Virus record (IMG/VR): IMGVR_UViG_3300048114_000047
Coordinates: 1-25,266 of that record
Source: a virus
DNA: 25,266 nucleotides
Strand: one strand, 5' to 3'
Below, piece after piece: positions 1,775-19,305 of this stretch (its first letter is position 1; each line of letters starts with the position of its first letter). The notes below the pieces were generated by a model. That model made no database searches and was not told where the DNA came from. It was given only the letters and a program-made list of their open reading frames with translations. A program made the translations under genes and the position numbers.

Positions 1775-2156
1775 TGCCCCCACTATCACCGCCGTCAGTG
1801 ACGCTTGTGCGTCCAGCGTGTTCGTGTGGTTGGTAAGATGATAATTCATCTAGTGCTTCTCTCACTTGGTTTTCTAAAATGCTTTGAACGGTTGCCAGTT
1901 CGGTTTCAGTTGCACAGACCGGCGCACACACTGACGGCAATGCCAGCAACCGCGCTTTCATTGCTGCTAACACGTCAACCCACGCACCGGCAACATCTTC
2001 CGCTGGCACCAGCTTGCCTTTAGCTTGCAGCAGTTCAAGTTCGGCCATTTGCGCGTCAGCTTCCATTTTGCGTGCGCGTGCGGCGTTATAGTCGGCATCC
2101 TCAATGCGTGGTCTTCCCACTGGTTTCTTTGCTTTTTCTGCAACAGTCTGCGCCAT
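1695..2156 (-). CDS. terS: Terminase small subunit (Nu1-like)
   Basis: A 153-residue protein immediately upstream of, and overlapping, the large terminase gene. It should bind the packaging start site and regulate TerL. The central segment (about residues 25-75, ARKMEADAQMAELELLQAKG then LVPAEDV, AMKARLLALPS) is typical of Nu1-family small subunits: a coiled-coil helix, then a V-x-E-V-like site and a helix for oligomerisation. Two GRPR motifs, one near each end (residues about 14-17 and 142-145), resemble AT-hook minor-groove binding sites. The ATG at 2156 has a good ribosome site (AAAGGGAAG). TerS identity rests on position plus the Nu1-like segment, as small terminases are poorly conserved. 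Confidence 0.85.
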   Translation of the reverse strand: MAQTVAEKAKKPVGRPRIEDADYNAARARKMEADAQMAELELLQAKGKLVPAEDVAGAWVDVLAAMKARLLALPSVCAPVCATETELATVQSILENQVREALDELSSYQPHEHAGRTSVTDGGDSGGNADAKATAAPKRGRVGRPRKATVIGS

Positions 2157-2253
2157 TTTCTTCCCTTTATTGCAATATTCAAAATAATTCTGTCGCTAGA
2201 AATCTTTTGCGGTCGCGCGTTACCCGTGAAAGTTTGGCTGCGGAAGTACCTTT

Positions 2254-3009
2254 TTATCTCGCACGCTTGGCACTCCGCTTGGCTGCCGCAAATCTGCGAC
2301 CAAAATTCCTGTTGAATGCCCCCCTAGCGAACCGTTGACTGTCCTCATAAAAGCTAAACTGCTTCGGCACGTTCAAGCTGCGCTGCTCTAACAAATACAA
2401 ACGCTTCAATGGATAACGCTTCTTCGTGCGGCGTTCCAATATCATCTGCTGGCCACCGACCGTCTGCTTAAACGCCTTCGGTCTGTCCAACACTGTGCGT
2501 GGTGCGTTGCGATTGTATCCTGCACGACCGCGCACTGCTGGCCGGTCTGCTGCTGGTATCGCTATGCTGCGGCCATTAGCGTGCTTCAAGCCACCAACAG
2601 CCAGACGTTGCAGATAGTCTTTGTGCATCGCGCCTGTCGGATGGTTCTGCACTATCGACCGCAGTTTGCGTTTAGTCGCGCGGTTGTTCCCGCGTATAGG
2701 CATCATCGCTGCCTTCATAAACGATCTGTTCTTGGCGTCCACATCGCTTGGCCATACACGTTCGATGGTGTTGCGGCGTGTCTCAAACGCTGCATCATTC
2801 AATGCTTGTGACATAGCAAACGGCATCTGGTTCTTGCCAAACGCATCTAATGCTTTCGTGAACGCTGGCAGATTGCTTGTGACGTTAACTGACATCGACC
2901 CTGCTGCTGCCTGTGCCACTGCGCCGCGACTGACGCCGCCAGCTATGGCACCACGCGCTGCACCGCCTACAACTAATCGCCCTGCAAATGCCAGTAACTG
3001 TATCGCCAT
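2254..3009 (-). CDS. Probable minor head-tail/neck protein (minor tail protein Z-like)
   Basis: A 251-residue basic protein. The ATG at 3009 overlaps the stop of the previous gene (TAATG), which decides the start. After an alanine/glycine-rich N-terminus, residues about 40-100 (MPFAMSQALNDAAFETRRN, then PIRGNNRATKRKLRS) follow the pattern of phage proteins that resemble lambda gpZ or P2-type neck proteins: an ALN-type helix, a short basic hinge, then a strand region. The C-terminus is very rich in arginine. Its place before the terminase, away from the other connectors, is unusual. The family call is inferred from pattern only, and an internal virion or scaffolding-associated protein is an alternative. 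Confidence 0.5.
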   Translation of the reverse strand: MAIQLLAFAGRLVVGGAARGAIAGGVSRGAVAQAAAGSMSVNVTSNLPAFTKALDAFGKNQMPFAMSQALNDAAFETRRNTIERVWPSDVDAKNRSFMKAAMMPIRGNNRATKRKLRSIVQNHPTGAMHKDYLQRLAVGGLKHANGRSIAIPAADRPAVRGRAGYNRNAPRTVLDRPKAFKQTVGGQQMILERRTKKRYPLKRLYLLEQRSLNVPKQFSFYEDSQRFARGAFNRNFGRRFAAAKRSAKRAR

Positions 3010-3194
3010 TAGTGTTGCGTTTCCTGTTCCAGTTCCAATATCACCACAGTGCCAGACGTGTCCCGCGCATCGAATATAATGCCATCGCACTCAGTGCAGT
3101 TGATCGTGCCGCTATTCTCTTCGACACAGCCATATGTCTCAGCCTGACAGTGCAGACATATACAGACCTCTTCAAAGAATAACACATATGACAT
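3009..3194 (-). CDS. Small zinc-ribbon protein, first gene of the structural operon
   Basis: A 61-residue protein starting MSYVLFFEEV. It has two CxxC knuckles (Cys13/Cys16 and Cys33/Cys36) with a CTECDG second knuckle, as in rubredoxin-like zinc ribbons. An acidic beta segment (VVILELE) closes the protein. The frame is open further upstream to 3275, but that would cross a transcription terminator at 3212-3242, so the ATG at 3194 is preferred. It has no clear ribosome site and lies just where the candidate promoter would start transcription. Function is unknown. Small zinc ribbons in phages are often DNA- or transcription-related, but nothing here proves that. Confidence 0.6.
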   Translation of the reverse strand: MSYVLFFEEVCICLHCQAETYGCVEENSGTINCTECDGIIFDARDTSGTVVILELEQETQH

Positions 3195-3200
3195 TTGCAA

Positions 3201-3229
3201 ACCATAAGCGCAAAACAAAAGCCGGTCAA
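3201..3229 (-). promoter_or_regulatory. Candidate sigma70-type promoter for the structural operon
   Basis: On the minus strand TTGACC (3229-3224, five of six consensus bases) is followed after 17 bases by TATGGT (3206-3201, four of six). The predicted start is within a few bases of the ATG at 3194, so the transcript would be nearly leaderless. The -35 box lies in the hairpin of the terminator for the previous operon. Position fits a boundary between early and late transcription units. Sequence match only. Confidence 0.45.
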
Positions 3230-3242
3230 TCACCGGCCTTTG
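3212..3242 (-). terminator. Rho-independent terminator of the leftward early operon
   Basis: On the minus strand a 6-bp GC stem GCCGGT/ACCGGC (3237-3232 and 3226-3221) with a 5-base loop is followed by TTTTGTTTT (3220-3212). It lies just after the stop of the last early gene (3262) and before the zinc-ribbon gene. Confidence 0.85.
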
Positions 3243-3261
3243 TCCCTCTCTCCAGTTGTTG

Positions 3262-3435
3262 TCAATCTTCATCATCTGGCGGGTCTGTCTTTACATCACC
3301 CTGCCCGTTGCATATCTCGCATATCACCCGCTTGCCGGTGTCAATCTCATAACGCCCCAAGCCAAAGCAGTTGTCACACGGCTTATAGTGATCCATCACA
3401 TATGGCGGCACAAAGCCTTTCGGCAGATCTGTCAT
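3262..3435 (-). CDS. Small DnaJ-type cysteine-rich zinc protein
   Basis: A 57-residue protein with two CxxCxGxG-type repeats (CDNCFGLG at residues 20-27 and CEICNGQG at 39-46), the motif of the DnaJ cysteine-rich zinc domain, followed by an acidic tail (DPPDDED). Only one zinc site is present, compared with two in DnaJ, and there is no J-domain. The ATG at 3435 overlaps the previous gene's stop as ATGA, which fixes the start, although the frame is open upstream to 3492. Free-standing single zinc sites of this type are common in small phage proteins, and the function is not known. It is the last gene before the terminator. Confidence 0.65.
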   Translation of the reverse strand: MTDLPKGFVPPYVMDHYKPCDNCFGLGRYEIDTGKRVICEICNGQGDVKTDPPDDED

Positions 3436-3560
3436 TGCACCACACCCCAGTTGCCAGACATCCAAGCCCATATTGTGTATTCTTTGCCCCATACGTCAAA
3501 CATCAGTGACGCCACGGCCAGCAAAAACACCAACCCGCATATCTCTTGCCATATACGCAT
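3432..3560 (-). CDS. Small single-pass membrane protein, 42 residues
   Basis: This frame runs from an ATG at 3560 to a TGA at 3432. It has a very good ribosome site (GGGGGTTGAT before the ATG), starts 2 bases after the lipoprotein gene, and overlaps the next start as ATGA. The protein begins MRIWQEICG, has one hydrophobic stretch (about residues 8-22, LVFLLAVASL) and then a tryptophan-rich short tail. The tight coupling on both sides is the main evidence that it is real. Function is not recognised. The pairing with a lipoprotein could suggest an envelope role such as exclusion of other phages, but this is speculation. Confidence 0.6.
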   Translation of the reverse strand: MRIWQEICGLVFLLAVASLMFDVWGKEYTIWAWMSGNWGVVQ

Positions 3561-3561
3561 A

Positions 3562-3789
3562 TCAACCCCCTATGATGCTATGACCGCGATTGATCAGACA
3601 CTTGTTGACCATCTGCCGCACCTCAAATGGCAAATGATACCAGCTAGTGGCCATATCTGCCAACGCACGACACTCAGCCACGTCACGCTGATAAAGCTGC
3701 GCCTTATCCTCGCTAACGCGCAAATCGGCTATTGGGGCGCGACTGGCGCACCCCGATAACACGATTGCTGTTACGACTAGCCAGCGCAT
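3562..3789 (-). CDS. Small lipoprotein, 75 residues
   Basis: The N-terminus MRWLVVTAIVLSGCAS is a short signal peptide with a lipobox (LSGC, lipidated Cys14). The mature part of about 61 residues is mostly helical, with two further cysteines (CRALAD and NKCLINRG) that could form a disulfide in the periplasm. The start overlaps the upstream stop as TAATG. It lies in the early operon and not by the holin and endolysin, so an outer-membrane spanin is possible but not favoured. A superinfection-exclusion lipoprotein would fit early expression. No family is recognised. Confidence 0.7.
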   Translation of the reverse strand: MRWLVVTAIVLSGCASRAPIADLRVSEDKAQLYQRDVAECRALADMATSWYHLPFEVRQMVNKCLINRGHSIIGG

Positions 3790-4130
3790 TATGCTGACTG
3801 CACTGATGCAAGATATGTCTGCATCTCTCTCGCACGTTTGTCGAAAAACTTGCCACCGCGCACGATGCTTGGCTCATCGTTCCAGTGACCTTCGCGGTAG
3901 TCGATCTGTGCGCGATTGTCTAAATCGCCAACAAACAACTGCATAACATCGAAACGCACTAGCGTTGATGGCTTAATATTGTCAGCCAATAATTCATTGA
4001 GGAAATCAACATAGGCATCGCGCAACTCAACAGGCTCTATATTGCCAGCGCACTCAATGAAATTACACAACTCTGAATAGTTGTAGCGGCCAGAGGTGTT
4101 AAAGCGAAACTTGAAAGGTAATTTAGTCAT
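3789..4130 (-). CDS. Hypothetical protein, 113 residues
   Basis: The start is set at the ATG at 4130 because GGGAG lies 9 bases upstream. The longer open frame to 4229 overlaps the previous gene and has no ribosome site. The protein begins MTKLPFKFRFN and has helices with aromatic and acidic residues in the middle. Its C-terminal part (RGGKFFDKRAREMQTYLA) is basic. No signal peptide, membrane segment or known motif is seen. It is followed directly by the lipoprotein gene (TAATG overlap). Function unknown. Confidence 0.6.
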   Translation of the reverse strand: MTKLPFKFRFNTSGRYNYSELCNFIECAGNIEPVELRDAYVDFLNELLADNIKPSTLVRFDVMQLFVGDLDNRAQIDYREGHWNDEPSIVRGGKFFDKRAREMQTYLASVQSA

Positions 4131-4167
4131 TTTGCAAACTCCCGTTTTGCTGTGGTGGGCGGGGCTG

Positions 4168-4353
4168 TTAAGCCGCCGCCTTGACGTTGTGTTTTGCAAC
4201 ATATCTGGTGTGTTCCCAAATGCGCCCATCTTTTAATATCTGTTGCAAACCAAAACGCTTTGCCGTTTCAGAAATTACGACAAACTTTTTTTCTGAATAA
4301 TCATCGCGTGAAAGGTCTGTAACGATGTCACCGATTTTGATTTGTGTTGTCAT
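4168..4353 (-). CDS. Hypothetical small basic protein, 61 residues
   Basis: Begins MTTQIKIGDIVTDLSRDDYSEKKFVVIS, a pattern of short beta strands with a GDIV turn that recalls small SH3/KOW-like barrels common in phage early regions. It has a good ribosome site (CGGGAG, 9 bases before ATG). It is the first gene after a 78-bp gap downstream of the replication initiator gene. The gap holds an inverted repeat and a possible promoter, so this gene may begin a sub-operon. The fold suggestion is by pattern only. Confidence 0.6.
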   Translation of the reverse strand: MTTQIKIGDIVTDLSRDDYSEKKFVVISETAKRFGLQQILKDGRIWEHTRYVAKHNVKAAA

Positions 4354-4372
4354 TTTGGATACTCCCGTTTCC

Positions 4373-4417
4373 GTGTTGATGACTTACAGTGCGCCTTTAT
4401 TTACCCCTAGTCAACAC
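4373..4417. promoter_or_regulatory. Inverted repeat and possible promoter/operator between initiator gene and small early genes
   Basis: Arms GTGTTGA (4373-4379) and TCAACAC (4411-4417) are perfect 7-base inverted repeats separated by 31 bases. On the minus strand TTGACT (4414-4409) sits in the right arm, with TAAATA and TGTAAG downstream at non-ideal spacing, so a promoter is only weakly supported. The gap of 78 bp is one of the largest in this packed genome. It could be an operator, an mRNA structure in the leader of the 4353 gene, or both. Confidence 0.4.
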
Positions 4418-4431
4418 TTATTTCCATTTTT

Positions 4432-5136
4432 TTACACATCAGCACCCACTTTTTTTAATTCGGCAATCACATCCGGTCTGTTTTGCTTGTAATAGGTGCG
4501 TAAACCGTCACCCATTGTCTGCCACTGTTCTAAGCTGACCATCCTGCGCTGTGGCGGTGTCCATTCTGTTGATTGGCTATTAAACGCCCTAGGTTGCCCA
4601 CTGACGCGCTTTGGCTTGTTTTTGGCATCTCGCATACACCAGTTGCGCCAGAACGCCTGTACGTCGACATACGCGGCTTTGTTACCGTTTTGCTGATCCC
4701 ACATCCTGATTGCTTGTAAGACCTCACCACCGTTAAGACCTTTATCAGCGGCATAGGCCAGATCTTCATCCGATGGCGTCCAATCACAAACTTTGGTTTT
4801 CTGCTGTTTTTTATTTAACGGTTCTTTAATGGTTATGGGTGCATCTCCTGCAGGGGTGTCCTGCATCTGGTGCAGGGGTGCGAGATATGCAGGGGTGTAT
4901 TCTGTTGACCGACCAGACCTATGATTTCGGCGCAAAAAGCCTTCATCTTCCAGCTTTTTCAGCTTTGCTCTGACGGTTCGCTCTGACGCACCCGTAATGT
5001 GGCAAATATGCCCCACAGATGGCCACGCAACGCCCCGCGCATCGTTGTGATGGTTTGCCACCACAATAAGTACCAGCTTTGCAAGCGGGTCGTTTACAGG
5101 CGCATCCATCGCCCAATCTAACGCTTTAATGCTCAT
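4432..5136 (-). CDS. Replication initiator: winged-helix plus DnaT-like domain
   Basis: A 234-residue protein. The start at 5136 overlaps the upstream stop (ATGA) and has a strong ribosome site (GGGGAG). Residues about 10-75 form a winged helix-turn-helix (WPSVGHICHITGASERTVR then LKKLEDEGFLRR), as in phage replication proteins of the lambda O/HTH_36 type. Residues about 118-170 (DWTPSDED, IRMWDQQN, FWRNWCMRDA) match the pattern of the DnaT-like domain that contacts ssDNA and helps load the replicative helicase. The linker (residues 78-115) is coded by DNA with three iterons and an AT-rich stretch, so the origin probably lies inside the gene. No helicase or helicase loader is otherwise visible, so host DnaB/DnaC-type proteins are the likely partners. 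Confidence 0.75.
   Translation of the reverse strand: MSIKALDWAMDAPVNDPLAKLVLIVVANHHNDARGVAWPSVGHICHITGASERTVRAKLKKLEDEGFLRRNHRSGRSTEYTPAYLAPLHQMQDTPAGDAPITIKEPLNKKQQKTKVCDWTPSDEDLAYAADKGLNGGEVLQAIRMWDQQNGNKAAYVDVQAFWRNWCMRDAKNKPKRVSGQPRAFNSQSTEWTPPQRRMVSLEQWQTMGDGLRTYYKQNRPDVIAELKKVGADV
4786..4897. other. Candidate replication origin (iterons plus AT-rich stretch inside the initiator gene)
   Basis: Three iterons (4849-4897) are flanked, on the 3' side of the gene, by about 50 bases that are roughly 70 percent A+T (4786-4836), a possible unwinding element. In phage lambda the origin has the same plan: iterons and then an AT-rich region within gene O, between the domain that binds DNA and the domain that binds the helicase loader. 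Here the repeats also fall between a winged helix and a DnaT-like domain. Origin function is inferred, not shown. Confidence 0.6.
4849..4897 (+). repeat. Three direct repeats TGCAGGGGTG (candidate origin iterons)
   Basis: Exact 10-base copies lie at 4849-4858, 4871-4880 and 4888-4897 (start-to-start 22 and 17 bases). They lie inside the initiator gene. The outer copies are read in one frame (giving Thr-Pro-Ala twice) and the middle copy in another (Ala-Pro-Leu-His), so the repetition is kept at DNA level and does not follow from a repeated peptide. Confidence 0.8.
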
Positions 5137-5954
5137 ATCACACACTCCCCGTGACTGGCTTGGCAAAAATAACCTTGTTCATCAAATACCCAATCCTGTT
5201 GACGTTGCACGAAATCCACAAATTCAGCCAAATTTCTGCCTTTTCTGAAAGTGCTATCAATCATCTTTTCTTGCTTTATCCACCAATTTGCCCGATCTGG
5301 ATGTTCACGCGCCATTGCCGCCAAAATGCTTTCGCTTTTTAAAAAGCAAAAATCACAATTGCCATAAAGTGATGCGCCTTTTACGTTGGGCAGTTGCAAA
5401 TCAAATGCTTGCTCTTGCCAAAACCCAGCCACGTCCGCTTTGGTAATGCCAGCTTGTATCATTGGAAACCAATACGACCAACGATCTTTGCTTTCGCTTT
5501 TTTCCCGATGTGCTTCATCCGCGCGTATCCCGACCGCCGCAACCCACTTTTTCCAGCCAAGCTGTTTTGTCAAATATCGCTTCATTGGCAAAATCTTCAG
5601 TTCTGTTGTGCAAAAACGCGCCGCAATATTCGGCAAATATTTTTTTTGTCTAATCATCAATTCAAATGGTTCACCATAAAAACTTGCGTTTTCATAATCT
5701 GTCAGCCGATACCCAGCTTTGCCATCTGGCCGGTCGTATTCCAGCCACGCAATCGGCACGCCCCATTTTTCACTGCATTCATTTACAAAATCTAGCGTTT
5801 GTTGCATTTCCCGACCTGTGTTCGCAAACGTCACAACCGCGCGTTCCGGCAGACCATCATTTGCTTCGATAATGCGATAAAGCATATAAGCTGACGTTCT
5901 GCCCCCGCTAAAACTGATCTGCACGTTTCCATCTGGCAAAATAAATTCATTCAT
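5133..5954 (-). CDS. PAPS reductase/ATP pyrophosphatase-family protein
   Basis: An adenine nucleotide alpha-hydrolase of the phosphoadenosine-phosphosulfate reductase family, 273 residues from the ATG at 5954. The PP-loop is SGGRTS near the N-terminus, followed by VTFANTGRE, RFCTTELKILPMKRYL and IRADE segments seen in this family. Four cysteines toward the C-terminus (NCDFCFLK, then YFCQASHGEC) could bind a metal cluster or zinc. Such genes are common in marine phages. Proposed roles are sulfur assimilation or a DndC-like step in nucleic acid modification, but no Dnd partner is present here. A TTG two codons upstream is a less likely start, because GGAG is better spaced for the ATG. It overlaps both neighbours by a few bases. 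Confidence 0.85.
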   Translation of the reverse strand: MNEFILPDGNVQISFSGGRTSAYMLYRIIEANDGLPERAVVTFANTGREMQQTLDFVNECSEKWGVPIAWLEYDRPDGKAGYRLTDYENASFYGEPFELMIRQKKYLPNIAARFCTTELKILPMKRYLTKQLGWKKWVAAVGIRADEAHREKSESKDRWSYWFPMIQAGITKADVAGFWQEQAFDLQLPNVKGASLYGNCDFCFLKSESILAAMAREHPDRANWWIKQEKMIDSTFRKGRNLAEFVDFVQRQQDWVFDEQGYFCQASHGECVI

Positions 5955-6213
5955 TATCAATTATCTCCAATGTCAGTGCCGCATAGCCAATGATGTCCAA
6001 TAAACTGTCAACGTGCTTGCACTCGCTGTTTGCCAGCCGTGACAGTTTCATTGCGATCATCATCGCCCCAAACTGCTCCGGCGTAATATCTTTACCAGCA
6101 ATCATCGACATCATCTGGCTTGTCTGTGTCCAGTTTTTACGCAGATCGCCGTAACTTTCCCCGCGCTGCTTCAAAATCGCTTGCACATTTTCCAATGCTT
6201 TAGAACGGTTCAT
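5947..6213 (-). CDS. DUF6378-like small phage protein
   Basis: An 88-residue all-helical protein that begins MNRSKALENVQAIL. The order of motifs fits the DUF6378 pattern of phage accessory proteins: an N-terminal helix, RGESYGDLRKNW, then an ITPEQFGAMMIAMKLSRL helix, then VDSLLDIIGYAAL. The biochemical role of this family is not established. It may be related to the all-alpha NTP pyrophosphatase fold, given the helix pattern, but the EExxE-type metal site is not clear here. The start has AGAGG upstream and overlaps the previous gene by 14 bases. Confidence 0.7.
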   Translation of the reverse strand: MNRSKALENVQAILKQRGESYGDLRKNWTQTSQMMSMIAGKDITPEQFGAMMIAMKLSRLANSECKHVDSLLDIIGYAALTLEIIDNE

Positions 6214-6622
6214 TGAATACCTCTAAAATTGTAAACTCTTGAATTGGCACTTCGGCCATCAACCCATAATCACGCTCAATTCCGCGATCCCGTCTGCCGC
6301 CGATAGTTGTTTCAAAATCCACGTTGAAATTGACATAACCAATGCAGTCGATCCATCGCACGATTAAAAATGTCGGCAAGCCGGTTTCAAACGCCACTTG
6401 CCGCGCATACATCATTTTGTGCAGATGCAGCAACGATGTTTTGTATCGGCTGATCTCAAAAGTGCGGCACTTTATTTCTGCAAACGCCGCTATTCCGCCA
6501 TCACGCACCAGCCCGAAATCAAGCTGATCATACTGTGGCAGCTTCACAAAATCTACGTTCCAAACGCGGCTGACCGATTGCATTGTTTGCAGTTCTAGCA
6601 CCCGATTTGCTTTAGTCTCCAT
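6200..6622 (-). CDS. PD-(D/E)XK nuclease-like protein, 140 residues
   Basis: The start is the ATG at 6622, immediately after the previous stop, with a GGGGG ribosome site. The open frame extends to 6772 but that part overlaps another gene. Residues 35-51 hold a PD-(D/E)XK-type core: Asp35 (YDQLDFGLV) and Glu49-x-Lys51 (FAEIKCR). A conserved C-terminal block (IGGRRDRGIERDYG, then VPIQEFTIL) is one I recognise from hypothetical proteins of many marine phages. It is probably a nuclease or a nuclease-derived protein, with the substrate unknown. It sits next to a second nuclease-like gene and may act in recombination or host DNA breakdown. Confidence 0.65.
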   Translation of the reverse strand: METKANRVLELQTMQSVSRVWNVDFVKLPQYDQLDFGLVRDGGIAAFAEIKCRTFEISRYKTSLLHLHKMMYARQVAFETGLPTFLIVRWIDCIGYVNFNVDFETTIGGRRDRGIERDYGLMAEVPIQEFTILEVFNEPF

Positions 6623-6623
6623 A

Positions 6624-6884
6624 TCAACCCCCATTCGGATCATATGATAGGTTATTCGGATTAAACGGGATGATGTTGTGCTTGTTGCGCGTGTTTTTGC
6701 AGTATTCCGCGCGGATAACACCAAGCGGTTCAACGCCATCTTCAATATGTCGCGGATAAACCCGCACCTCAATGCCGGTCTTGCCTTTAAACAAATGTAT
6801 CGTCAGATCTTTAACGTCAATCCAGCTTTCCGCTGACAGCATCGTATAAGTGCGATCACCGATTGTTTGATAGCCATCATCCAT
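6624..6884 (-). CDS. Hypothetical protein, 86 residues
   Basis: A soluble protein beginning MDDGYQTIGDRTYTML, predicted mostly beta in the first 60 residues (DLTIHLFKGKTGIEVRVYP), with an asparagine/proline-rich C-terminus (IIPFNPNNLSYDPNGG). The ATG overlaps the stop of the Hjc-like gene by 8 bases, and the stop is followed at once by the next start, so it is firmly in the operon. It sits between two PD-(D/E)XK-like genes. No motif is recognised. Confidence 0.6.
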   Translation of the reverse strand: MDDGYQTIGDRTYTMLSAESWIDVKDLTIHLFKGKTGIEVRVYPRHIEDGVEPLGVIRAEYCKNTRNKHNIIPFNPNNLSYDPNGG

Positions 6885-7314
6885 TTGCTAATATCTCCCG
6901 CGTGACATAACAGAACGTGTCAATATCCATTTCACAGGCATATCGCCAGTCGTGCTTTTCAGCAATGTCACCAGCCATCACAAAAAACGTCAAATATGTC
7001 ATCGCTTGCACCGGCACTCTTACCCGCGTCTTTTGTCGATCCAGCCGGTAAAACAGACAAGGCATTTTATCGCCGCCAGCATATTCAGCCGCCGCGCATA
7101 CTTGATCCCACCACGCACTATCCACCCCCGATTTTCGCCTCTTGCATTCCAGAACAAAAGGAAAATCGCAATCATCAGTATATAAATCGCCAAGGTGTTT
7201 CTGGCGTGTCTGATCCAATTCACGCACGAATGTGATGCCAAGCTGATCATATAATTCTTTTGCGATTTCATATTCATAGCCCTTGCCTTTATTGCGGCTT
7301 TTCAATCCAGACAT
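6877..7314 (-). CDS. Hjc-like Holliday junction resolvase/PD-(D/E)XK nuclease
   Basis: A 145-residue protein beginning MSGLKSRNKGKGYEYEIAKEL, an N-terminal basic helix with the Glu found in archaeal Hjc-type resolvases. GDL (Asp43) and ECKRRK (Glu56, Lys58) complete the PD-(D/E)XK metal site. The expected role is to resolve recombination or replication junctions before packaging. The ATG at 7314 is chosen because GGGGGC lies just upstream. An ATG at 7347 in the same frame would add 11 residues and is possible. It is the first gene of the leftward early operon, divergent from the exonuclease/ERF operon. Confidence 0.75.
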   Translation of the reverse strand: MSGLKSRNKGKGYEYEIAKELYDQLGITFVRELDQTRQKHLGDLYTDDCDFPFVLECKRRKSGVDSAWWDQVCAAAEYAGGDKMPCLFYRLDRQKTRVRVPVQAMTYLTFFVMAGDIAEKHDWRYACEMDIDTFCYVTREILANG

Positions 7315-7422
7315 CGCTGCCCCCGTTCGGTTGGTTTCGCATATCATTGCCGAAACGGGATTAATCTGTAAAGCGGAAATTTAAGTGTTGCAAAATGTTA
7401 GTGCGTGGAATACGGTGTCGAA
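7315..7422. promoter_or_regulatory. Divergent early promoter region
   Basis: This is the only place where two operons diverge, so both early promoters should lie here. For the minus strand a weak match is TTGCAA (7393-7388), 17 bases, then TACAGA (7370-7365). For the plus strand TTGCCG (7347-7352), 16 bases, then TAAAGC is weaker still. No clear operator is seen. If the upstream alternative starts (7347 minus, GTG 7405 plus) are used, the gap shrinks to 57 bases. Confidence 0.4.
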
Positions 7423-8265
7423 ATGAAACGGGAAATCGGAAAAGAATGGCGTGACGCTGACCTGACACACTTATCTGTCAGCCAGCTAAATCGCACGCCT
7501 GCATATTGGATTTACGCATATTTGTATCTGCGTGATGACCGCAAAAACATTACTGTCGGGGAAAACGCCGCAGTCGGTACAGCAGTGCATAACGGCTTGC
7601 AGTCAATCGTCTGCCACGGTCAGGATATTACTGATCAGATCTTGGCAGCACAGATTGCGTTTGATTTCCACGATGCTAATCAGGATGCCGCAAAGCGTGA
7701 AAAATATCGTGATTGCATCCCGGATATGATCCGCAACGGCATCGACATATTGACTGAATATGGCTTTACAGGCGCGGTTGATGAAGAACGCATCGAAACG
7801 TGGCTTGATGGCGTCAACGTGCCGCTGATCGGCTTTGTTGATCTATTGGTGCCGGATACGATGTTTTGTGAAATAAAGACCAAAGCACCGCGTAAAACAA
7901 AGCTGCTGAAAGATGGCACGCAGGGATGGGCGAAAGCGACCCTGCCAAAAGCACCAGAAAAAGCGCACGTTGCACAGGCTGCGATTTATCAATACGCGCT
8001 GCAAGTGACGCCATCGATATGTTACATCACTGATCACGATGCTGTGATGTTCACGCCGTTTAACTGTGATGAATTGAAATCTGACGCACTAGCGTATGCG
8101 GTTGAAGATATGCGGCAAAAGGCATTGATCCGGCAGAACCTGTTGCGCGTCAGCACAGATCCGAAAGTGCTGGCCAGCTTTACCGATCCAGATTGGGGTC
8201 ATATGTATCAATGGAAAATCGAAACCGAATATTTAGAAAAGGCGAAAAAATTATGGAAGCTGTAA
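7423..8265 (+). CDS. RecB/Cas4-like PD-(D/E)XK exonuclease
   Basis: A 280-residue protein from the ATG at 7423. A GTG at 7405 in frame would add six residues, and no ribosome site clearly decides. The N-terminus has LSVSQLNRTPAYW, typical of the RecB-nuclease-like family (PDDEXK_1). His56 in GTAVHNGL, Asp140 in GFVDLL, then Glu150-x-Lys152 in CEIKTK form the metal site, and HVAQAAIYQYA is the conserved Q-x-x-x-Y motif. It is probably a 5'-3' double-strand DNA exonuclease that makes single-strand tails for the ERF annealing protein whose gene overlaps its 3' end by 13 bases. Together they form a two-component phage recombinase. Confidence 0.85.
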   Translation: MKREIGKEWRDADLTHLSVSQLNRTPAYWIYAYLYLRDDRKNITVGENAAVGTAVHNGLQSIVCHGQDITDQILAAQIAFDFHDANQDAAKREKYRDCIPDMIRNGIDILTEYGFTGAVDEERIETWLDGVNVPLIGFVDLLVPDTMFCEIKTKAPRKTKLLKDGTQGWAKATLPKAPEKAHVAQAAIYQYALQVTPSICYITDHDAVMFTPFNCDELKSDALAYAVEDMRQKALIRQNLLRVSTDPKVLASFTDPDWGHMYQWKIETEYLEKAKKLWKL

Positions 8266-8831
8266 AACTTGACAAAGCATTGAGCGATTTCCGCAACGCG
8301 GCAACGCTTGGCAAATCTGGCAAAAACCCGATGTTCAAAAGCCAATACAGCACTTTGGGTGATGTGCTATCTGCGCTGAATAAAATATCTGAATATGGTT
8401 TGGCGTTTAAGCAATATTTCAGTGATGATTGTTTGGTCACAACTGTGTCGCACATCGAAACCGGCGAAAAGTTTGACAGTGCCATACCGATCCGGCCAGA
8501 AAAGAACACACCGCAGTCATACATCAGTTGCGTGACCTATCTGCGCCGCGCCAGTTTAATGACGATGTTCGGATTGAATGCGGACGATGATGATGGTAAC
8601 TTGGCATCTGGCAATGGCGCGTCTTCCTCCCGTTCGCAGCCTATGTCAAAGGCACCGGCAGTCGCTCCCACTTCGGCTGTCGGTGCCGCCTCCCCAAACA
8701 TCGATAAAGAATTGCAGCAATGCAATAGTGCGCGTGATGTCAACGCGCTTTACACCAATCTGGTGCGTGCGCGTGACGTGACGCCAGATGAAATTGAAAA
8801 AATGCGTATTAGAAAAGAGGAATTAAAATGA
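8253..8831 (+). CDS. erf: ERF-family single-strand annealing protein
   Basis: A 192-residue protein from the ATG at 8253. The open frame begins at 8193 but the first 20 residues there fall deep inside the exonuclease gene. KSGKNPMFKSQYSTLGDVLSALN and YISCVTYLRRASLMTMFGLNADDDDGN are the signature segments of the ERF superfamily. A low-complexity Ser/Ala/Pro linker (about residues 125-150) leads to a short helical C-terminal domain. It should anneal complementary single strands made by the upstream exonuclease, for circularisation or recombination of replicating DNA. Its stop overlaps the next start as ATGA. Confidence 0.88.
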   Translation: MEAVKLDKALSDFRNAATLGKSGKNPMFKSQYSTLGDVLSALNKISEYGLAFKQYFSDDCLVTTVSHIETGEKFDSAIPIRPEKNTPQSYISCVTYLRRASLMTMFGLNADDDDGNLASGNGASSSRSQPMSKAPAVAPTSAVGAASPNIDKELQQCNSARDVNALYTNLVRARDVTPDEIEKMRIRKEELK

Positions 8832-9091
8832 GCGATTATGATGATACAAATCGGGGTGCGATTTTCAAAAACGACAAAACGTCTGACACCCAGCCAGACT
8901 ATACCGGCAAGATCAATGTCGATGGCGTGGAAAAGCGCATTGCGTTGTGGATACGCGAAAGCCAAAAAGGCACCAAATATATGTCAGCAGCTATCAGCGA
9001 CCCACAGCCGCCGCAAAACCAGCCACAAAGCCAGCCGCAGGGTCAGCCGGTAACATTGTCACAAGCTGTTGATGATGCGATCCCGTTCTAA
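8828..9091 (+). CDS. Small protein with SSB-type acidic C-terminal tip
   Basis: An 87-residue protein. Residues 1-55 (MSDYDDTNRGAIFKND, then YTGKINVDGVEKRIALW) form a DUF736-like beta pattern with the phage-typical N-terminus. A Gln/Pro-rich flexible linker (about 57-75) leads to VDDAIPF at the extreme C-terminus, almost the same as the conserved DDDIPF tip of bacterial SSB. That architecture, a small beta domain, disordered linker and acidic tip ending in Pro-Phe, is that of an SSB-like protein. It lies directly after the ERF gene. It may bind ssDNA or compete with host SSB for partners such as RecO, PriA or exonuclease I. The OB fold is not proven. Confidence 0.7.
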   Translation: MSDYDDTNRGAIFKNDKTSDTQPDYTGKINVDGVEKRIALWIRESQKGTKYMSAAISDPQPPQNQPQSQPQGQPVTLSQAVDDAIPF

Positions 9092-9110
9092 ACCAAAAAC
9101 ATCACGCCGG

Positions 9111-9272
9111 ATGCCGCGCCTTGAGCGTTGCATCTGGTGTGAAAAAGATGTGGATCTAAACGGCAACGATTGGGTCTGTGACGGTAGCAAACAAGTGCTG
9201 CACGTTGACTGCTTTAATGACAGGTTAGGGATAATAAATGCAAATCGACAAAAACATACCGCTGCCACCTAA
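9111..9272 (+). CDS. Small zinc-finger protein
   Basis: A 53-residue protein from the ATG at 9111. A start at 9069 would overlap the previous gene and add 14 basic residues. Near the N-terminus CIWC is a CxxC knuckle. Further on are a single Cys (WVCDG) and HVDC, so a CCHC or CCC treble-clef-like zinc site is likely. The C-terminal part (RLGIINANRQKHTAAT) overlaps the next gene. No strong ribosome site is seen. Its position after the recombination genes suggests nucleic acid binding, without direct proof. Confidence 0.55.
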   Translation: MPRLERCIWCEKDVDLNGNDWVCDGSKQVLHVDCFNDRLGIINANRQKHTAAT

Positions 9273-9450
9273 ACGGCACGCGATCAGATCAAAAGCTGTG
9301 GCTTTTGTTGACACAATGCAAGCTGGTGACAGTGTGCTATTTGATGATGTGTTAGATGCCAATAGGCTGCGTGATGCGCTGCGTTATCGCGGCATCAAAA
9401 CGTCAATGCGTAAAGGTGACGACGGGGTGCGGGTATGGCGTCTGTCGTAA
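9238..9450 (+). CDS. DUF7303-like small phage protein
   Basis: A 70-residue protein, MQIDKNIPLPPKRHAIRSKA, then MQAGDSVLF and a terminal DGVRVWRLS. This ordered pattern (IDKxIPLPP, GDSV, RVWR) is shared with many small phage proteins grouped as DUF7303, of unknown function, often near recombination or replication genes. The ribosome site is TTAGGGAT upstream of the ATG. It overlaps the zinc-finger gene by 35 bases and the next gene by 16. Confidence 0.7.
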   Translation: MQIDKNIPLPPKRHAIRSKAVAFVDTMQAGDSVLFDDVLDANRLRDALRYRGIKTSMRKGDDGVRVWRLS

Positions 9451-9590
9451 AGGTGCCATCATATGAGGAATTGCGTGCTTGTTTGCAAATCCCCAAAGCA
9501 ACCCCGCCGCTTGACCGGCTAGGTCGGCGTAATACAGCAACCACGCCAAAAGCGTTGCTGATCGAACGTGTAAAAAGAGAGCAGTGTTAG
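9435..9590 (+). CDS. Hypothetical small protein, 51 residues, last gene of the rightward operon
   Basis: Starts MASVVKVPSYEELRACLQIPKATPP from an ATG at 9435 that overlaps the upstream gene, and ends at a TAG (9588-9590). The protein is basic, with a short helix and then a disordered PP-rich linker. The TAG lies in the loop of the bidirectional terminator and overlaps the holin stop on the other strand by two bases. Overlap with its neighbour and sensible protein composition support it, but it is short and unrecognised. Confidence 0.5.
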   Translation: MASVVKVPSYEELRACLQIPKATPPLDRLGRRNTATTPKALLIERVKREQC

Positions 9591-9605
9591 CTGCTCTTTT
9601 TCTTA
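9572..9605. terminator. Bidirectional terminator shared by two convergent operons
   Basis: The stem AGAGCAG/CTGCTCT (9578-9584 and 9591-9597) has a 6-base loop TGTTAG. On the plus strand TTTTTCTT follows. On the minus strand the rc of 9572-9577 gives a run of T interrupted once. The stop codons of both converging genes (TAG at 9588-9590 plus, TAA at 9589-9587 minus) lie in the loop. Confidence 0.85.
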
Positions 9606-9955
9606 TTTTGGAAACTTTCCAGCGCACCGGCACCAAAGTAAAAACCCAAGATGATCATCATCGCATAGTTGATGCTAAACTGTTCCATCACTTGCGTCAC
9701 CGCATTCGGGTCGCCGGTTCCGGCAATCGTCATTGTCAGCACGATGATATAACTGGCCAGAAACGTGAACCCAAACATCAGTGCCAGATAGCGTTGCGCC
9801 AGCTTAAACGGTGCATAGGCATTCATCAAATCTATGCGTGCTTTGCTTTTTGCGGCAATCTCTTCTTCAGTGCTGGTGTGCATATCGTCGATCAGCTTCA
9901 TACCCTGCTTCACGACATCGCCAGACCCCAAAATTTTACCTAATACTGCAAGCAT
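9587..9955 (-). CDS. Holin of the GTA/3TM type
   Basis: A 122-residue membrane protein. The ATG at 9955 follows the endolysin stop (TAATATG) with GGAG correctly placed. A longer frame to 9994 has no such site. The sequence begins MLAVLGKILGSGDVVKQGMKLIDDMHTS, as in the 'holin of 3TMs' family of gene transfer agents and related phages (GTA_holin_3TM). A charged helix (EEEIAAKSKARIDLMNAY) comes next, then two clear hydrophobic segments (YLALMFGFTFLASYIIVLTM and YAMMIILGFYFGAGAL) and a basic tail. It would permeabilise the inner membrane and release the endolysin. It is the last gene of the late operon. Confidence 0.8.
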   Translation of the reverse strand: MLAVLGKILGSGDVVKQGMKLIDDMHTSTEEEIAAKSKARIDLMNAYAPFKLAQRYLALMFGFTFLASYIIVLTMTIAGTGDPNAVTQVMEQFSINYAMMIILGFYFGAGALESFQNKKKSS

Positions 9956-9956
9956 A

Positions 9957-10334
9957 TTAATAACTCCAAACATTCGGACGCGGTGCGCCGCCAAACGTGT
10001 CTAAATGCAAAAACCTTGCACTGCCTTTTTGTGCCACACCGATGCCAGTGAAACCCATCTGGAAAGCCAGCCGCATCAGTTCGTGCGCTTGTTGCCCGTT
10101 GCACGCTATATCAACCGCACAGCCCCGCGTATGCACTGACAGTTTGCCGGTAGGCTTGCTGGCTTCGATGCTGTGCTTCGGGCTGCGATAGCCGCTGGTG
10201 ACGGTCATTGGCTGACCATACACATCACGCAATTCTTGCAACTTCGCCATAAACGATGCCGACATATTGCATTCGCCGGTTTCACTGCACGCAAATTCGT
10301 CTTTGCTAAAATTAGGATACTTTGACCAATCCAT
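9957..10334 (-). CDS. Endolysin: peptidase M15A (D-Ala-D-Ala peptidase) family
   Basis: A 125-residue single-domain cell-wall peptidase. The M15A zinc site is visible: His68 and Asp75 in SVHTRGCAVDI, His110 and Asp112 in FLHLD, with the usual TVTSGYRSP strand before it (Ser47-Arg50). The N-terminal NFSKDEFACSETGECNM motif is also typical. It should cleave peptide cross-links in peptidoglycan at the end of infection. There is no signal peptide, so release depends on the holin encoded just downstream. Its start overlaps the nuclease gene by 23 bases. Confidence 0.9.
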   Translation of the reverse strand: MDWSKYPNFSKDEFACSETGECNMSASFMAKLQELRDVYGQPMTVTSGYRSPKHSIEASKPTGKLSVHTRGCAVDIACNGQQAHELMRLAFQMGFTGIGVAQKGSARFLHLDTFGGAPRPNVWSY

Positions 10335-10746
10335 TCATCTGCCTCATTTCCATAATGACATCAACCGCGTGATGCCAGCTATCAGCCTCGTTTTCAGCCG
10401 TAAACCGTGTCGGTGACACCCGTTTGGTTTTGTGCCGTAACAACGATGTGACGGGCATAAACAGGCAACGTCTTGATTGGGGCTGAACCAGAGCGACAAT
10501 ATCATAATCCTCAATCGTTGGGCTGCGTTTGTTGCCGCCGTGGCCAAGTTGGAAATGGCAAGACGGGCTTCGACGCCTAGTAGGTAAACACGGGTTCGAT
10601 GCTTTAACTTGAATGCGTAAAATCGTTTCATCTTGAAAAGCCACTAAATCAATTGCGGTTTGCTGTGCCATTGCGACGCGCCAATCTAACGCTAAGATCG
10701 CAGCGGCGGCAATATGCTCACCAATTAGCCCAAGTGTCACCGACAA
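10312..10746 (-). CDS. PD-(D/E)XK endonuclease-like protein in the lysis region
   Basis: A 144-residue protein with the compact core of the PDDEXK/Holliday-junction-resolvase-like group: Glu10 (GLIGEHIAAA), Asp33 (TAIDLVAF) and Gln46-x-Lys48 (LRIQVKAS). Gln replaces the usual Glu in the last motif, as also seen in the archaeal and phage family 'PD(D/E)XK endonuclease'. It is located between structural and lysis genes, and late expression would suit a role in junction clearance during packaging. The C-terminal half (LRHKTKRVSP) is basic. Function by fold only. Confidence 0.7.
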   Translation of the reverse strand: MSVTLGLIGEHIAAAAILALDWRVAMAQQTAIDLVAFQDETILRIQVKASNPCLPTRRRSPSCHFQLGHGGNKRSPTIEDYDIVALVQPQSRRCLFMPVTSLLRHKTKRVSPTRFTAENEADSWHHAVDVIMEMRQMNGLVKVS

Positions 10747-11184
10747 CTAAATCGCCATAATCAGCCAAACAACACCGCCAAGTGTCAGTGCAATAAGCCC
10801 TGCAATCAACCCCCAAACAATCAAATTATCGATAAACTCTTGTCGCGCAATTTCTTCTTCTTTTTTGCGTTTTCTGATTTCGCCTTGCAGCCTGATGATC
10901 TGTTGCCAAGCGTTCATCCCGTAATGCCCGATCACGAAATTGCGTAATTCATTTTCCATCTGCTGCGCTTTTTTTAACGCAGCAAAACTTTCCAACGCTT
11001 CTTCTTCAACCGACCCAAAGCGGCGCGATTTAGCTATGCCGTGTGATGTTTTGATGTTTTGGATAGCACCCATCCAGCGGCCAAGATCGCCAGACATACT
11101 TTCGATCTGTTTACCGGCTGCAATGCCTTTTTTTAGCAGATTAAAACTGGTCGTGGCGGCTGCTAATAATGTGACGGGATCCAT
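10747..11184 (-). CDS. Tail-anchored membrane protein with coiled coil, unknown role
   Basis: A 145-residue protein. The N-terminus (MDPVTLLAAATTSFNLLKKGIAAGKQIESM) is an amphipathic helix. Residues about 60-115 are highly charged coiled coil (EEALESFAALKKAQQMENELR then EIRKRKKEEEIARQ). One strong transmembrane segment lies at the C-terminus (WGLIAGLIALTLGGVVWLIMAI). Similar proteins occur in many marine phages close to the lysis genes, without known function. An inner-membrane spanin-like or holin-accessory role is a guess, but the membrane anchor is at the wrong end for a classical i-spanin. Confidence 0.6.
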   Translation of the reverse strand: MDPVTLLAAATTSFNLLKKGIAAGKQIESMSGDLGRWMGAIQNIKTSHGIAKSRRFGSVEEEALESFAALKKAQQMENELRNFVIGHYGMNAWQQIIRLQGEIRKRKKEEEIARQEFIDNLIVWGLIAGLIALTLGGVVWLIMAI

Positions 11185-11205
11185 TTGGCCACCTCGATGT
11201 CATAG

Positions 11206-11280
11206 TTACTCCCGTACTAAGTAAACAATCCAGATCAGCATAAACGTCTGGATCAGATCGATCATAGGTATCTGTATCAT
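11206..11280 (-). CDS. Possible 24-residue single-pass membrane peptide
   Basis: Frame from ATG at 11280 to TAA at 11206, starting MIQIPMIDLIQTFMLIWIVYLVRE. It is almost entirely a transmembrane helix. The start overlaps the stop of the 52-residue gene as ATGA, which favours translation. So short a frame may be fortuitous. If real it could belong with the lysis genes. Confidence 0.35.
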   Translation of the reverse strand: MIQIPMIDLIQTFMLIWIVYLVRE

Positions 11281-11435
11281 TTGCGCTGCCTCATTCTCCA
11301 TAGTCGCCAAAACACTAACACCATCGCACCAAATGCTGCGGCCATACCAAACCAGCTTTCAAGCGCATCCACCCACATTGGCGCAGACAAGCCGGTGGCT
11401 ATTGTCGCAATGTCAATTTGGGTGTCGTTGTCCAT
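11277..11435 (-). CDS. Small single-pass membrane protein, 52 residues (holin-like)
   Basis: Frame from ATG at 11435 to TGA at 11277. Start and stop both overlap neighbours (TGATG and ATGA), which is strong evidence of a translated chain. The first half is polar (MDNDTQIDIATIATGLSAP). One transmembrane helix at about residues 29-46 (FGMAAAFGAMVLVFWRLW) is followed by a very basic tail (RMRQRK), giving an N-out, C-in topology as in class III-type or pinholin-like small lysis proteins. It could be a second holin, an antiholin, or a virion-associated membrane protein. Confidence 0.55.
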   Translation of the reverse strand: MDNDTQIDIATIATGLSAPMWVDALESWFGMAAAFGAMVLVFWRLWRMRQRK

Positions 11436-11587
11436 CAGTCAACATCCTCTTCGGCAGTGTTGCCTTGCTCAATCCACACAAGATATTCCTGATAGTCAAC
11501 ATTAGCGGGATCAAAAGGAATAAAAGCGTTGTCCTCAAGCCTGACAATACTGCGTCCACCGATCATATTTGTCTTGATAACGTACAT
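11435..11587 (-). CDS. Short conserved protein after the tail fibre, 50 residues
   Basis: Frame from ATG at 11587 to TGA at 11435, 1 base after the fibre stop. GGAG is placed at a suitable distance. The protein starts MYVIKTNMIGGRSIVRLEDN and contains FIPFDPANVDYQEYLVWIEQGN, a pattern (IPxDPxNxDYxxYLxWxxxGN) that recurs in tiny proteins and fibre tips downstream of tail fibres in many phages. It may be a fibre accessory or assembly factor. Function is unproven. Confidence 0.7.
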   Translation of the reverse strand: MYVIKTNMIGGRSIVRLEDNAFIPFDPANVDYQEYLVWIEQGNTAEEDVD

Positions 11588-11588
11588 A

Positions 11589-12770
11589 TTAAAGCTCCGA
11601 ATTAAATGTAAGCAATTGCCCGTCAGTAGTAGTCTGGTAGTAAAAAAGTCCTAATCTGGTTTTTACGACTTCCGCAAAACCAGCCCCACCACCTGAAATC
11701 GTTGGGGCAGCCCTCATTTCAACAGGATAATTTGTTCCAGTTGGAGCAACTCCGCTAACAACTGCGGAAACATATTTAGTATCTTGGAAATAATACCGCT
11801 GACACTTTCTAAGCGTAGTGCCGATATCCTCGTGGATGAAGTCAGTCGCTGTTTGGCCTAATTCTAATTTTACGCCAGTGATGTCTAAAGTTGCATCAGA
11901 TGTGCCAGCCCAATTTGCAATGTCATCAGGCAGGTACTTTGTTGAATCTAACGCAACCCAACTATCCATTGTTGCGGTGCTGTCTGTAAAATTTGTGCCA
12001 AGCCAAGCTACAAAATGAATACTTAATCCACTGCCATCGTCATTGTTAAACACTAAATTAGAGTTGCCAGAAATGGTTTTGGTCACTTTTGTCCAAGTAT
12101 TTGCCGCTAGTGTTTCTGTAAAACTAAACTGATAACTTGCGTCATCTGCTGTTATGTAAAGACCGTATTTACCAGCAACACTTGAACGCACCCAAAAACT
12201 AAGTGTTACATAACTGCTTGTACTTGTGTAATTCCAACCAGAGTTAGAGATATTTTGCGCTTCAATACGATGAATTATTTGACGATAGTCACCAGTACCA
12301 GATGTGGTAGCTGTGTTTGTCATTCTAAAGTAATTTCTAAAGCCTAAAGCATAAGGCGCATCACTTGATGTTAAACTTTCTTGAGAACCCGTTACAGTTC
12401 CGCCAACACCATAACTGTTTTGCCAACGGTCAACGCTTCCATATCCATTGGTTGTGCTACTGGTACCCCGCTGTGCCACTTGCATCGCACCATTGATGAT
12501 GAGGTTAGGGTTCGGCTGAATGGATGTTGCAGGCAAACTGACTGTGTCATTTGCTTGATCAAATTCAAATAAAGTGATCCACGCATCATTATCAGCATTA
12601 CGCATTTTGATAAAATCAGTCGTGGTGTCATACCAAAGCTGATATGCGTATGTAGTCGATGGCGCGGTTGCACCAGCATTTGTGGTTGCAATAGCTGCCA
12701 GCGCATTATTCAAATCTGTGCGCGTATTTGGAAACGTCTGATTGTCTATTACATAATCGTGTTGTGACAT
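11589..12770 (-). CDS. Tail fibre/receptor-binding protein with jelly-roll domain
   Basis: A 393-residue protein that follows the tail hub gene directly. The N-terminal module (residues about 10-75, NTRTDLNNALAAIATTNAG, then YAYQLWYDTTTDFIKMRNADNDAWI) is the virion-attachment pattern common in marine phages. From NLIINGAMQVAQRGTS onward a beta-rich CBM-like jelly roll is likely (GSVDRW, YRQIIHRIEAQ, LSFWVRSSVAGKYGLYI, TWTKVTKTI, VKLELGQTATDFIHED). The LRKCQRYYFQ segment is a typical end of this domain. A short Gly-rich tip (SGGGAGFAEVV) follows. It probably recognises a surface glycan on the host. Host range should map here. Confidence 0.85.
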   Translation of the reverse strand: MSQHDYVIDNQTFPNTRTDLNNALAAIATTNAGATAPSTTYAYQLWYDTTTDFIKMRNADNDAWITLFEFDQANDTVSLPATSIQPNPNLIINGAMQVAQRGTSSTTNGYGSVDRWQNSYGVGGTVTGSQESLTSSDAPYALGFRNYFRMTNTATTSGTGDYRQIIHRIEAQNISNSGWNYTSTSSYVTLSFWVRSSVAGKYGLYITADDASYQFSFTETLAANTWTKVTKTISGNSNLVFNNDDGSGLSIHFVAWLGTNFTDSTATMDSWVALDSTKYLPDDIANWAGTSDATLDITGVKLELGQTATDFIHEDIGTTLRKCQRYYFQDTKYVSAVVSGVAPTGTNYPVEMRAAPTISGGGAGFAEVVKTRLGLFYYQTTTDGQLLTFNSEL

Positions 12771-15620: not shown

Positions 15621-16178
15621 CTAACTGCCCCAAGTGATCTGTTTGTCTTGCAAACTGGCTACCATTTCTAAACCTTTATCGCTTGGGTAGTCAATTTTCT
15701 GATCTTCGCTTGTAAAACGTCTAGTGCGGCTGCGATCCAAATCGATCAATCTGCTTTCTGCACTGACGTTGATATTGGCTGTTGCGCCAGCATCTTCGAT
15801 GGTCATCACATCCATACGACCGCTGAACATCGTATATGGTGTGTCTATGATCGCACCGCTGTCATTTAAAAAGCCAAAAAACACCTTTAACGATCTGCCT
15901 TGATAGTTTTCTGACAACGCCGCAGATACCAAACTACTGTCTAAACCAGATAACGTGATATTCACGCCATTAGCTTGCACTTGGCTGGTTTCTGCAATTT
16001 CGCTCAAATTGAGATAGCTGGCAGACCCCACATATGTTTCACTGTCAATCGTGATGTCACCGTAGCCATTCCAGACCGTAACAAGACCGCCATCAAAATC
16101 CATACGCACAGCAAAAAACGGCTGAACCTCGCCAGCCGCTAATTCAGCTTCAAAGTTAGTGCCAATCGATCTAGCCAT
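15621..16178 (-). CDS. Tail-tip protein, DUF2163/gpL-like
   Basis: A 185-residue beta-rich protein between the distal-tail gene and the hub gene, directly abutting both. The segments VQPFFAVRMDFDGGLVTVWNG, IDSETYVGS, LSGLDSSLVSAAL, GRSLKVFFGFLND and MFSGRMDVMTIEDAG match the plan of DUF2163-like and gpL-like tail-tip proteins. Here the C-terminal zinc or Fe-S region of lambda gpL (four Cys) is absent, as the sequence holds no cysteine. It probably joins the tail tube to the hub. Confidence 0.75.
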   Translation of the reverse strand: MARSIGTNFEAELAAGEVQPFFAVRMDFDGGLVTVWNGYGDITIDSETYVGSASYLNLSEIAETSQVQANGVNITLSGLDSSLVSAALSENYQGRSLKVFFGFLNDSGAIIDTPYTMFSGRMDVMTIEDAGATANINVSAESRLIDLDRSRTRRFTSEDQKIDYPSDKGLEMVASLQDKQITWGS

Positions 16179-16808: not shown

Positions 16809-16810
16809 AA

Positions 16811-18895: not shown

Positions 18896-18904
18896 TATTT
18901 ACCC

Positions 18905-19294: not shown

Positions 19295-19305
19295 CGGTTT
19301 GTCTC

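What the first reader, a model, noticed from the sequence alone, without database searches (positions are those of the whole stretch)
4786..4897. Candidate replication origin built into the initiator gene, with iterons in two reading frames
Three exact copies of TGCAGGGGTG at 4849, 4871 and 4888 and a roughly 70 percent A+T stretch beside them lie in the linker of the replication initiator gene, between a winged helix and a DnaT-like domain. The outer copies are in one codon frame and the middle copy is in another, so selection is on DNA and not on the peptide. Lambda gene O has the same plan, but its C-terminal domain binds lambda P. Here a DnaT-like domain would take that place with no separate loader gene.
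Basis: partly seen in the sequence, partly recalled or inferred. Interest (0 to 1): 0.78.

Follow-up and report, generated by a model that had tools for sequence, protein, structure and literature searches.

The report
Phage replication origin inside its initiator gene
In this small marine phage the gene for the protein that starts DNA copying also contains the repeats that protein most likely binds; related phages keep those repeats unchanged as DNA and trade the binding domain and its repeats together as one block, as in phage lambda but now seen across a large group of uncultured viruses.

Summary
The three exact 10-mers are each half of a 19-bp, imperfectly palindromic iteron starting at 4840, 4862 and 4879. 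They sit in the linker of an HTH_36 initiator (4432-5136, minus strand) next to a 71% A+T tract.

The relatives give strong DNA-level evidence. In five groups with five N-domain/repeat types, the 30 codons with least synonymous variation always fall on the repeats plus A+T tract (codons 79-122; permutation p at most 0.0015 in each). In L025/L026 one T-to-C change is found in all three copies: silent in two, Leu-to-Pro in the copy that lies in the other frame. The winged helix and repeats travel as one cassette of about 330 bp: window, L028 and L032 share a 94-98% identical C-terminal part but have 46-59% identical N-domains, and the repeats follow the N-domain. The breakpoint lies in the A+T tract.

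The best reading is a lambda-O-like origin inside the initiator gene. The DnaT-like C-terminus is only suggested (best PDB fold match, E 1.4; no Pfam match). GC skew does not point here. No helicase, loader or primase gene was detected. Many known phages share the plan, so this is a new member of a known kind.

The parts
4432..5136 (-). Initiator gene, 234 aa (O-like replication initiation protein)
   Evidence: HTH_36 E 1.2e-11; phrog_1032 E 2.3e-21 and phrog_391 E 2.6e-16, replication initiation / O-like; 85 distinct viral loci with a tblastn match E<=1e-3 in two scans
4900..5136 (-). N-terminal winged-helix DNA-binding domain (codons 1-79); predicted recognition helix aa 52-64
   Evidence: Pfam HTH_36 17-68; AlphaFold2 model H41-48 H52-64 E68-74 E77-82
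4879..4897 (+). Iteron 1 in gene order (TGCGAGATATGCAGGGGTG); 10-mer 4888-4897
   Evidence: codon frame differs from the middle copy
4862..4880 (+). Iteron 2 (TGCATCTGGTGCAGGGGTG); 10-mer 4871-4880, in the other codon frame; contains the dyad CCTGCA-5-TGCAGG
4840..4858 (+). Iteron 3 (TGCATCTCCTGCAGGGGTG); 10-mer 4849-4858
4790..4834 (.). A+T-rich tract (71%), candidate unwinding element, on the 3' side of the iterons in gene sense; cassette exchange breakpoints fall at about 4800-4817
   Evidence: no synonymous variation at nearly all its codons in type A
4798..4899 (-). Synonymously silent block (codons 80-113): the candidate origin as seen by selection
4618..4788 (-). C-terminal three-helix domain (about aa 117-173), the part left constant in cassette exchange; possible helicase or loader contact
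   Evidence: AlphaFold2 pLDDT about 92; best PDB fold match is the DnaT C-terminal domain, not significant
4435..4617 (-). Variable linker and conserved C-terminal tail (TPPQRRM...NRPDVIAELKKVG)
   Evidence: conservation in A1 and A2

Best explanation
The linker of this initiator gene is most likely the phage's replication origin, working like ori-lambda. The N-terminal winged helix binds three 19-bp palindromic iterons encoded in its own linker, bends or wraps that DNA and opens the adjacent A+T tract. The C-terminal three-helix domain then brings in the host replicative helicase, directly or through the host's loader. Shown here by computation: the repeats, their two reading frames, strong DNA-level constraint, concerted change of all copies, and co-inheritance of repeats with the winged-helix domain. 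Inferred: binding, unwinding and helicase recruitment. Because the binding domain and its sites lie in one cassette of about 330 bp, a single recombination exchange can change origin specificity without breaking the match.
For: 1) DNA-level selection: in types A-E the lowest 30-codon window of synonymous diversity is codons 81-110 (A), 79-108 (B), 89-118 (C), 86-115 (D) and 93-122 (E), with means 0.00-0.06 against gene means 0.16-0.33; permutation p 0, 0.0005, 0, 0 and 0.0015 (profile). 2) No ORF of 60 aa or more overlaps 4790-4897 in any other frame, and the window has no Rfam family match. 3) Concerted change across frames: L025/L026 carry CCCCCGCA in all three copies, silent CCT>CCC in two and Leu>Pro (CTG>CCG) in the middle copy. 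Type D phages have CCCCTGTCA repeats (three exact copies in L043) with the same 17/22 spacing and the same frame pattern. L004 changes the linker peptide (HQMQD to QEMHP) but keeps all three 10-mers. 4) Repeats follow the N-domain: window/L028/L032 have C-part nt identity 94-98% but N-part 46-59% and three different repeat types; similarity resumes at codon 107-113 in the A+T tract. 5) Recognition-helix residue 57 is A or S in every close relative with TGCA/CGCA repeats and R in every one with GTGAC/GTCAC repeats. 6) Same plan in named phages: Pseudomonas phage Riah has 7 copies of ACCCCCGCA in three frames, Sphingopyxis VSN-002 four in three frames, Pam5 three in two frames; 81 of 89 further loci have three or more copies, 79 of them in two or three frames. 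7) The order winged helix - iterons - A+T tract - C-domain is that of lambda O (PMC7466680).
Against: No binding or replication experiment exists. Cumulative GC skew does not mark this site. RNA folding of the segment is mildly more stable than shuffles (z -2.2), as palindromic repeats would give. The residue-57 pattern is confounded by descent and has a distant counterexample: L185, helix GERSVQRSI, with CACCCCCGC repeats.
Confidence: 0.87

Rival explanations
1. The repeats are operators: the protein binds inside its own gene to regulate transcription or to mark the DNA (for example for partition), and the true origin is elsewhere.
For: Repeats and A+T stretches can also serve as operators; the detrended GC-skew minimum is at 7324, at a change of gene direction.
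Against: The position in the initiator linker, the A+T tract on the same side, and the match to the lambda, P22 and L arrangement (PMC7466680, PMC8022706). No DnaA-box match (TTATNCACA) in the window and no other short-spaced repeat array with three copies.
Confidence: 0.08
2. The repeats reflect a repeated peptide (TPA / APL) selected in the linker.
For: Two of the three copies encode TPA in the same frame; in types C and E the repeats keep one frame and encode SDTxxSP repeats.
Against: The middle copy is in another frame. The L025/L026 change is silent in two copies and amino-acid changing in the third. Synonymous variation is close to zero across the block in all five types.
Confidence: 0.02
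3. The block is an RNA element in the mRNA (structure or translation control).
For: Fold z-score -2.2, 3 of 200 shuffles as stable.
Against: No Rfam match. Copy numbers of 3 to 7 at mostly 17-23 bp steps in up to three frames, and covariation with the DNA-binding domain, point to protein-DNA binding.
Confidence: 0.03

Closest known systems
Phage lambda O gene / ori-lambda and Stx-phage O genes (PMC7466680)
   Same: Initiator with iterons of about 19 bp in the middle of its own gene, flanked by an A+T tract; DNA-level constraint.
   Different: Different winged-helix family (Pfam HTH_36; the lambda O Pfam family was not hit), different iteron sequences, three iterons instead of four or six, and no P-like loader gene detected in the genome.
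P22 and phage L gene 18 (PMC8022706)
   Same: Initiator-gene internal repeats that differ between related phages along with the initiator's sequence.
   Different: L has an 11-bp repeat TGTCCAACGGA; both are accompanied by a gene 12 DnaB-type helicase, which is not found in this window.
Replication initiation proteins of two closely related Gordonia phages (PMC10684548, Fig. 5E)
   Same: Near-identical C-terminal regions joined to dissimilar winged-helix N-termini: the same domain exchange.
   Different: The paper does not mention iterons; here the exchanged piece is shown to include the repeats.
HTH_36 initiators of Pseudomonas, Sphingopyxis and Pseudanabaena phages (Riah, Itty13, VSN-002, Pam5)
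   Same: HTH_36 domain, then CCCCGCA-type (or GGGGTCA-type in Pam5) repeats in several frames; 17-bp and about 22-bp spacing in the CCCCGCA group.
   Different: Repeat number 3 to 7, different C-domains; VSN-002 also encodes a DnaB-like helicase.
E. coli DnaT C-terminal domain
   Same: Best PDB fold match of the window's C-domain (2ru8); a W-P...A..G...W pattern by eye.
   Different: Not significant by sequence or by fold.

Membership tests
Gene-internal iteron origin of O-type phage initiators (functional kind) | Iterons inside the initiator coding sequence between DNA-binding and C-terminal parts | tested here: met
Gene-internal iteron origin of O-type phage initiators (functional kind) | A+T-rich tract beside the iterons | tested here: met
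   71% A+T at 4790-4834; 4786-4839 in the top 2% of 54-bp windows
Gene-internal iteron origin of O-type phage initiators (functional kind) | Repeats conserved as DNA among relatives | tested here: met
Gene-internal iteron origin of O-type phage initiators (functional kind) | Initiator binds the iterons and the segment supports replication | not testable with these tools
   needs EMSA or footprinting and a plasmid assay
Pfam lambda O family (Phage_rep_O) | Match to the Pfam profile | tested here: not met
   Not among the Pfam hits at E up to 0.1; the N-domain belongs to HTH_36
PHROGs replication initiation (phrog_1032, phrog_391 O-like) | Profile match | tested here: met
   E 2.3e-21 and 2.6e-16, over aa 1-114 only
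DnaT (PF17948) | Profile match of the C-domain | tested here: not met
   No match in the window; sub-threshold in distant relatives (L183 E 0.0067, L185 E 0.037)
DnaT (PF17948) | Three-helix fold like the DnaT C-terminal domain | tested here: inconclusive
   2ru8 is the top match in the PDB but E 1.4, prob 0.25; hhalign against 81 DnaT sequences probability 3%, E 0.015
Single-gene initiation (no phage helicase loader) | No helicase, loader or primase gene in a closed genome | tested here: inconclusive
   None in PHROGs scans; circle closed by a 127-bp overlap and an ORF of 621 codons across the junction; small unassigned ORFs remain

The most novel reading that the evidence does not exclude
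A self-contained, exchangeable origin cassette: about 330 bp carry both the specificity domain and its binding sites. It is traded among marine phages onto a constant C-terminal domain that recruits the host helicase without any phage loader, so that the match between recognition helix and iteron half-site can be read from natural recombinants.
Probability: 0.4. Interest if true: 0.68.

Novelty: new member of a known kind. Interest (0 to 1): 0.52.

Why it matters
It gives a sequence-only way to locate replication origins in uncultured phages: a dip in synonymous variation over linker repeats in HTH_36 initiators. It also offers natural recombinants for working out how initiators recognise their iterons. 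The cassette exchange suggests why origins are kept inside initiator genes: binding domain and sites are inherited together.

Tried and rejected
GC skew on the closed circle: minimum at 7324, follows gene direction, strand-corrected swing p 0.07, not informative. DnaT by Pfam, by hhalign against 81 DnaT sequences and by fold search: not established. Full-length model against the PDB: only generic winged-helix matches, E above 0.007. Sequence search of the PDB with the family profile: nothing significant. Prophage relatives in 84,980 bacterial and archaeal genomes: none found. Rfam: nothing. DnaA boxes TTATNCACA: none. A simple code 'R57 means GTGAC' holds in close relatives but fails in distant L185. 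Papers on HTH_36 or Pseudomonas-phage origins inside the initiator gene: none found in the held library, which lacks most subscription journals.

Full report
WHAT IS THERE. The window is a virus record of 25,266 bp whose first and last 127 bp are identical. The gene at 4432-5136 on the minus strand encodes 234 aa: an HTH_36 winged helix (aa 17-68, E 1.2e-11), a linker, and a C-terminal part. PHROGs files its first 114 residues under replication initiation and O-like proteins.

THE REPEATS. TGCAGGGGTG is at 4849, 4871 and 4888 and nowhere else in the window. It is the only 10-mer with three copies within 150 bp. In gene sense the copies are in frames 2, 1, 2. With random synonymous codons the same protein reaches three copies of a 10-mer in 61 of 20,000 trials. 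The full unit is 19 bp with a second, weaker arm (starts 4840, 4862, 4879; spacing 22 and 17), best seen as CCTGCA-ccaga-TGCAGG in the middle copy. The A+T tract 4790-4834 (71%) follows on the 3' side in gene sense.

SELECTION ON DNA. IMG/VR gave 62 and then 78 relatives in two overlapping scans, 85 distinct loci. I group them by N-domain and linker repeat: A (CCCCTGCA; CCCCCGCA in L025/L026), B (GTCACAGTGAC), C and E (GTGACA...TGTCAC palindromes) and D (CCCCTGTCA). Within each type, synonymous variation is 0.16-0.33 over the gene but 0.00-0.06 over 30 codons that always cover the repeats and the A+T tract, p at most 0.0015 each. In type A nearly every codon from 81 to 111 shows no synonymous change. 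No ORF of 60 aa or more overlaps the block in another frame. L025/L026 show the same base change in all three copies although it is silent in two and changes Leu to Pro in the third. L043, with a different half-site, keeps the 17 and 22 bp spacing and the same frame pattern.

THE CASSETTE. Window, L028 and L032 are 94-98% identical in the C-terminal part but 46-59% in codons 1-81, and their repeats are of types A, B and C. BLASTN similarity resumes at codon 107-113 in L028, L035, L038 and L071, inside the A+T tract; in L064 it runs from upstream to codon 11 and is then lost. The repeat type follows the N-domain and not the C-domain. In close relatives residue 57 of the recognition helix is A or S with TGCA/CGCA repeats and R with GTGAC/GTCAC repeats. 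This is confounded by descent and has a distant exception, L185.

HOW IT PROBABLY WORKS. By analogy with lambda and Stx-phage O proteins, which bind iterons in their own gene beside an A+T tract (PMC7466680), the winged helix should bind the three iterons and open the A+T tract. In the Stx phage P27, changing iterons without altering the O protein abolished plasmid establishment, which is the experiment to repeat here. The C-terminal three-helix domain (pLDDT about 92) is then the natural helicase-recruiting part; this step is inference. The genome shows ERF, SSB, RusA-like, PD-(D/E)XK and PAPS-reductase genes but no helicase, loader, primase or polymerase by PHROGs, so host enzymes would be needed. 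The closest cultured phages by capsid infect Roseobacter (42-48% aa identity), and alphaproteobacteria such as Caulobacter load DnaB with DciA (abstract of PMC12547741). A host DnaT partner is therefore doubtful if the host is of that kind.

THE DnaT CLAIM. Pfam DnaT does not match the window. hhalign against 81 enterobacterial DnaT sequences gives probability 3%, E 0.015. Foldseek of the C-domain ranks the DnaT C-terminal domain 2ru8 first in the PDB, but at E 1.4. Two distant relatives have sub-threshold DnaT hits, E 0.0067 and 0.037. I put a true DnaT relation at about one half.

HOW COMMON. Pseudomonas phage Riah has seven ACCCCCGCA copies in three frames; Sphingopyxis phage VSN-002 and Pseudanabaena phage Pam5 show the same arrangement. 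Of 89 further loci, 81 have three or more copies of a 9-mer in the region scanned and 79 of these use two or three frames; many of these loci are near-duplicates. P22 and L gene 18 are described examples (PMC8022706), and winged-helix exchange on a constant C-terminus is described for Gordonia phages without mention of iterons (PMC10684548). The finding is therefore a well-supported new member of a known kind. Its added value is the DNA-level evidence from natural variation and the demonstration that binding domain and repeats move together.

LIMITS. Everything is computational. Type groups were assigned from the sequences themselves, and relatives within a type are not independent samples. 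The literature library lacks most subscription journals, so prior reports of HTH_36 internal origins may exist.

Noticed in passing
5133-5954: PAPS-reductase-like gene directly upstream of the initiator is missing at that position in most near relatives (L002, L004, L005, L028) but L064 matches across it: a removable accessory gene beside the origin cassette.
   Followed up: partly
4128-4147 and 4351-4370: A leader AAACGGGAGTxxxxAAAATG (ribosome site plus start codon) occurs twice in the window (expected 0.04) and exactly in 37 of the other loci fetched, mostly just downstream of the initiator, once or twice each.
   Followed up: partly
L177-L181 (Roseobacter phages CRP-821, -831, -406, -811, -823): Cultured phages with a related capsid gene carry a RepA-type or primase/helicase gene in their replication region, with no annotated O-like initiator there: a whole-module exchange of replication strategy.
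   Followed up: partly
20509-23070: 853-aa major head protein; matches to head-protease and major-head families over different parts suggest a protease-capsid fusion.
   Followed up: no
L182, L183, L237: Initiators with D instead of E in the recognition helix (SDR) carry CCCCCGAA repeats where SER/GER forms carry CCCCCGCA: a possible one-residue, one-base link.
   Followed up: no
25126..1849 across the record ends: An open reading frame of 621 codons beside the small-terminase gene spans the record junction, so the 127-bp end repeat is an assembly overlap of a circular map.
   Followed up: yes
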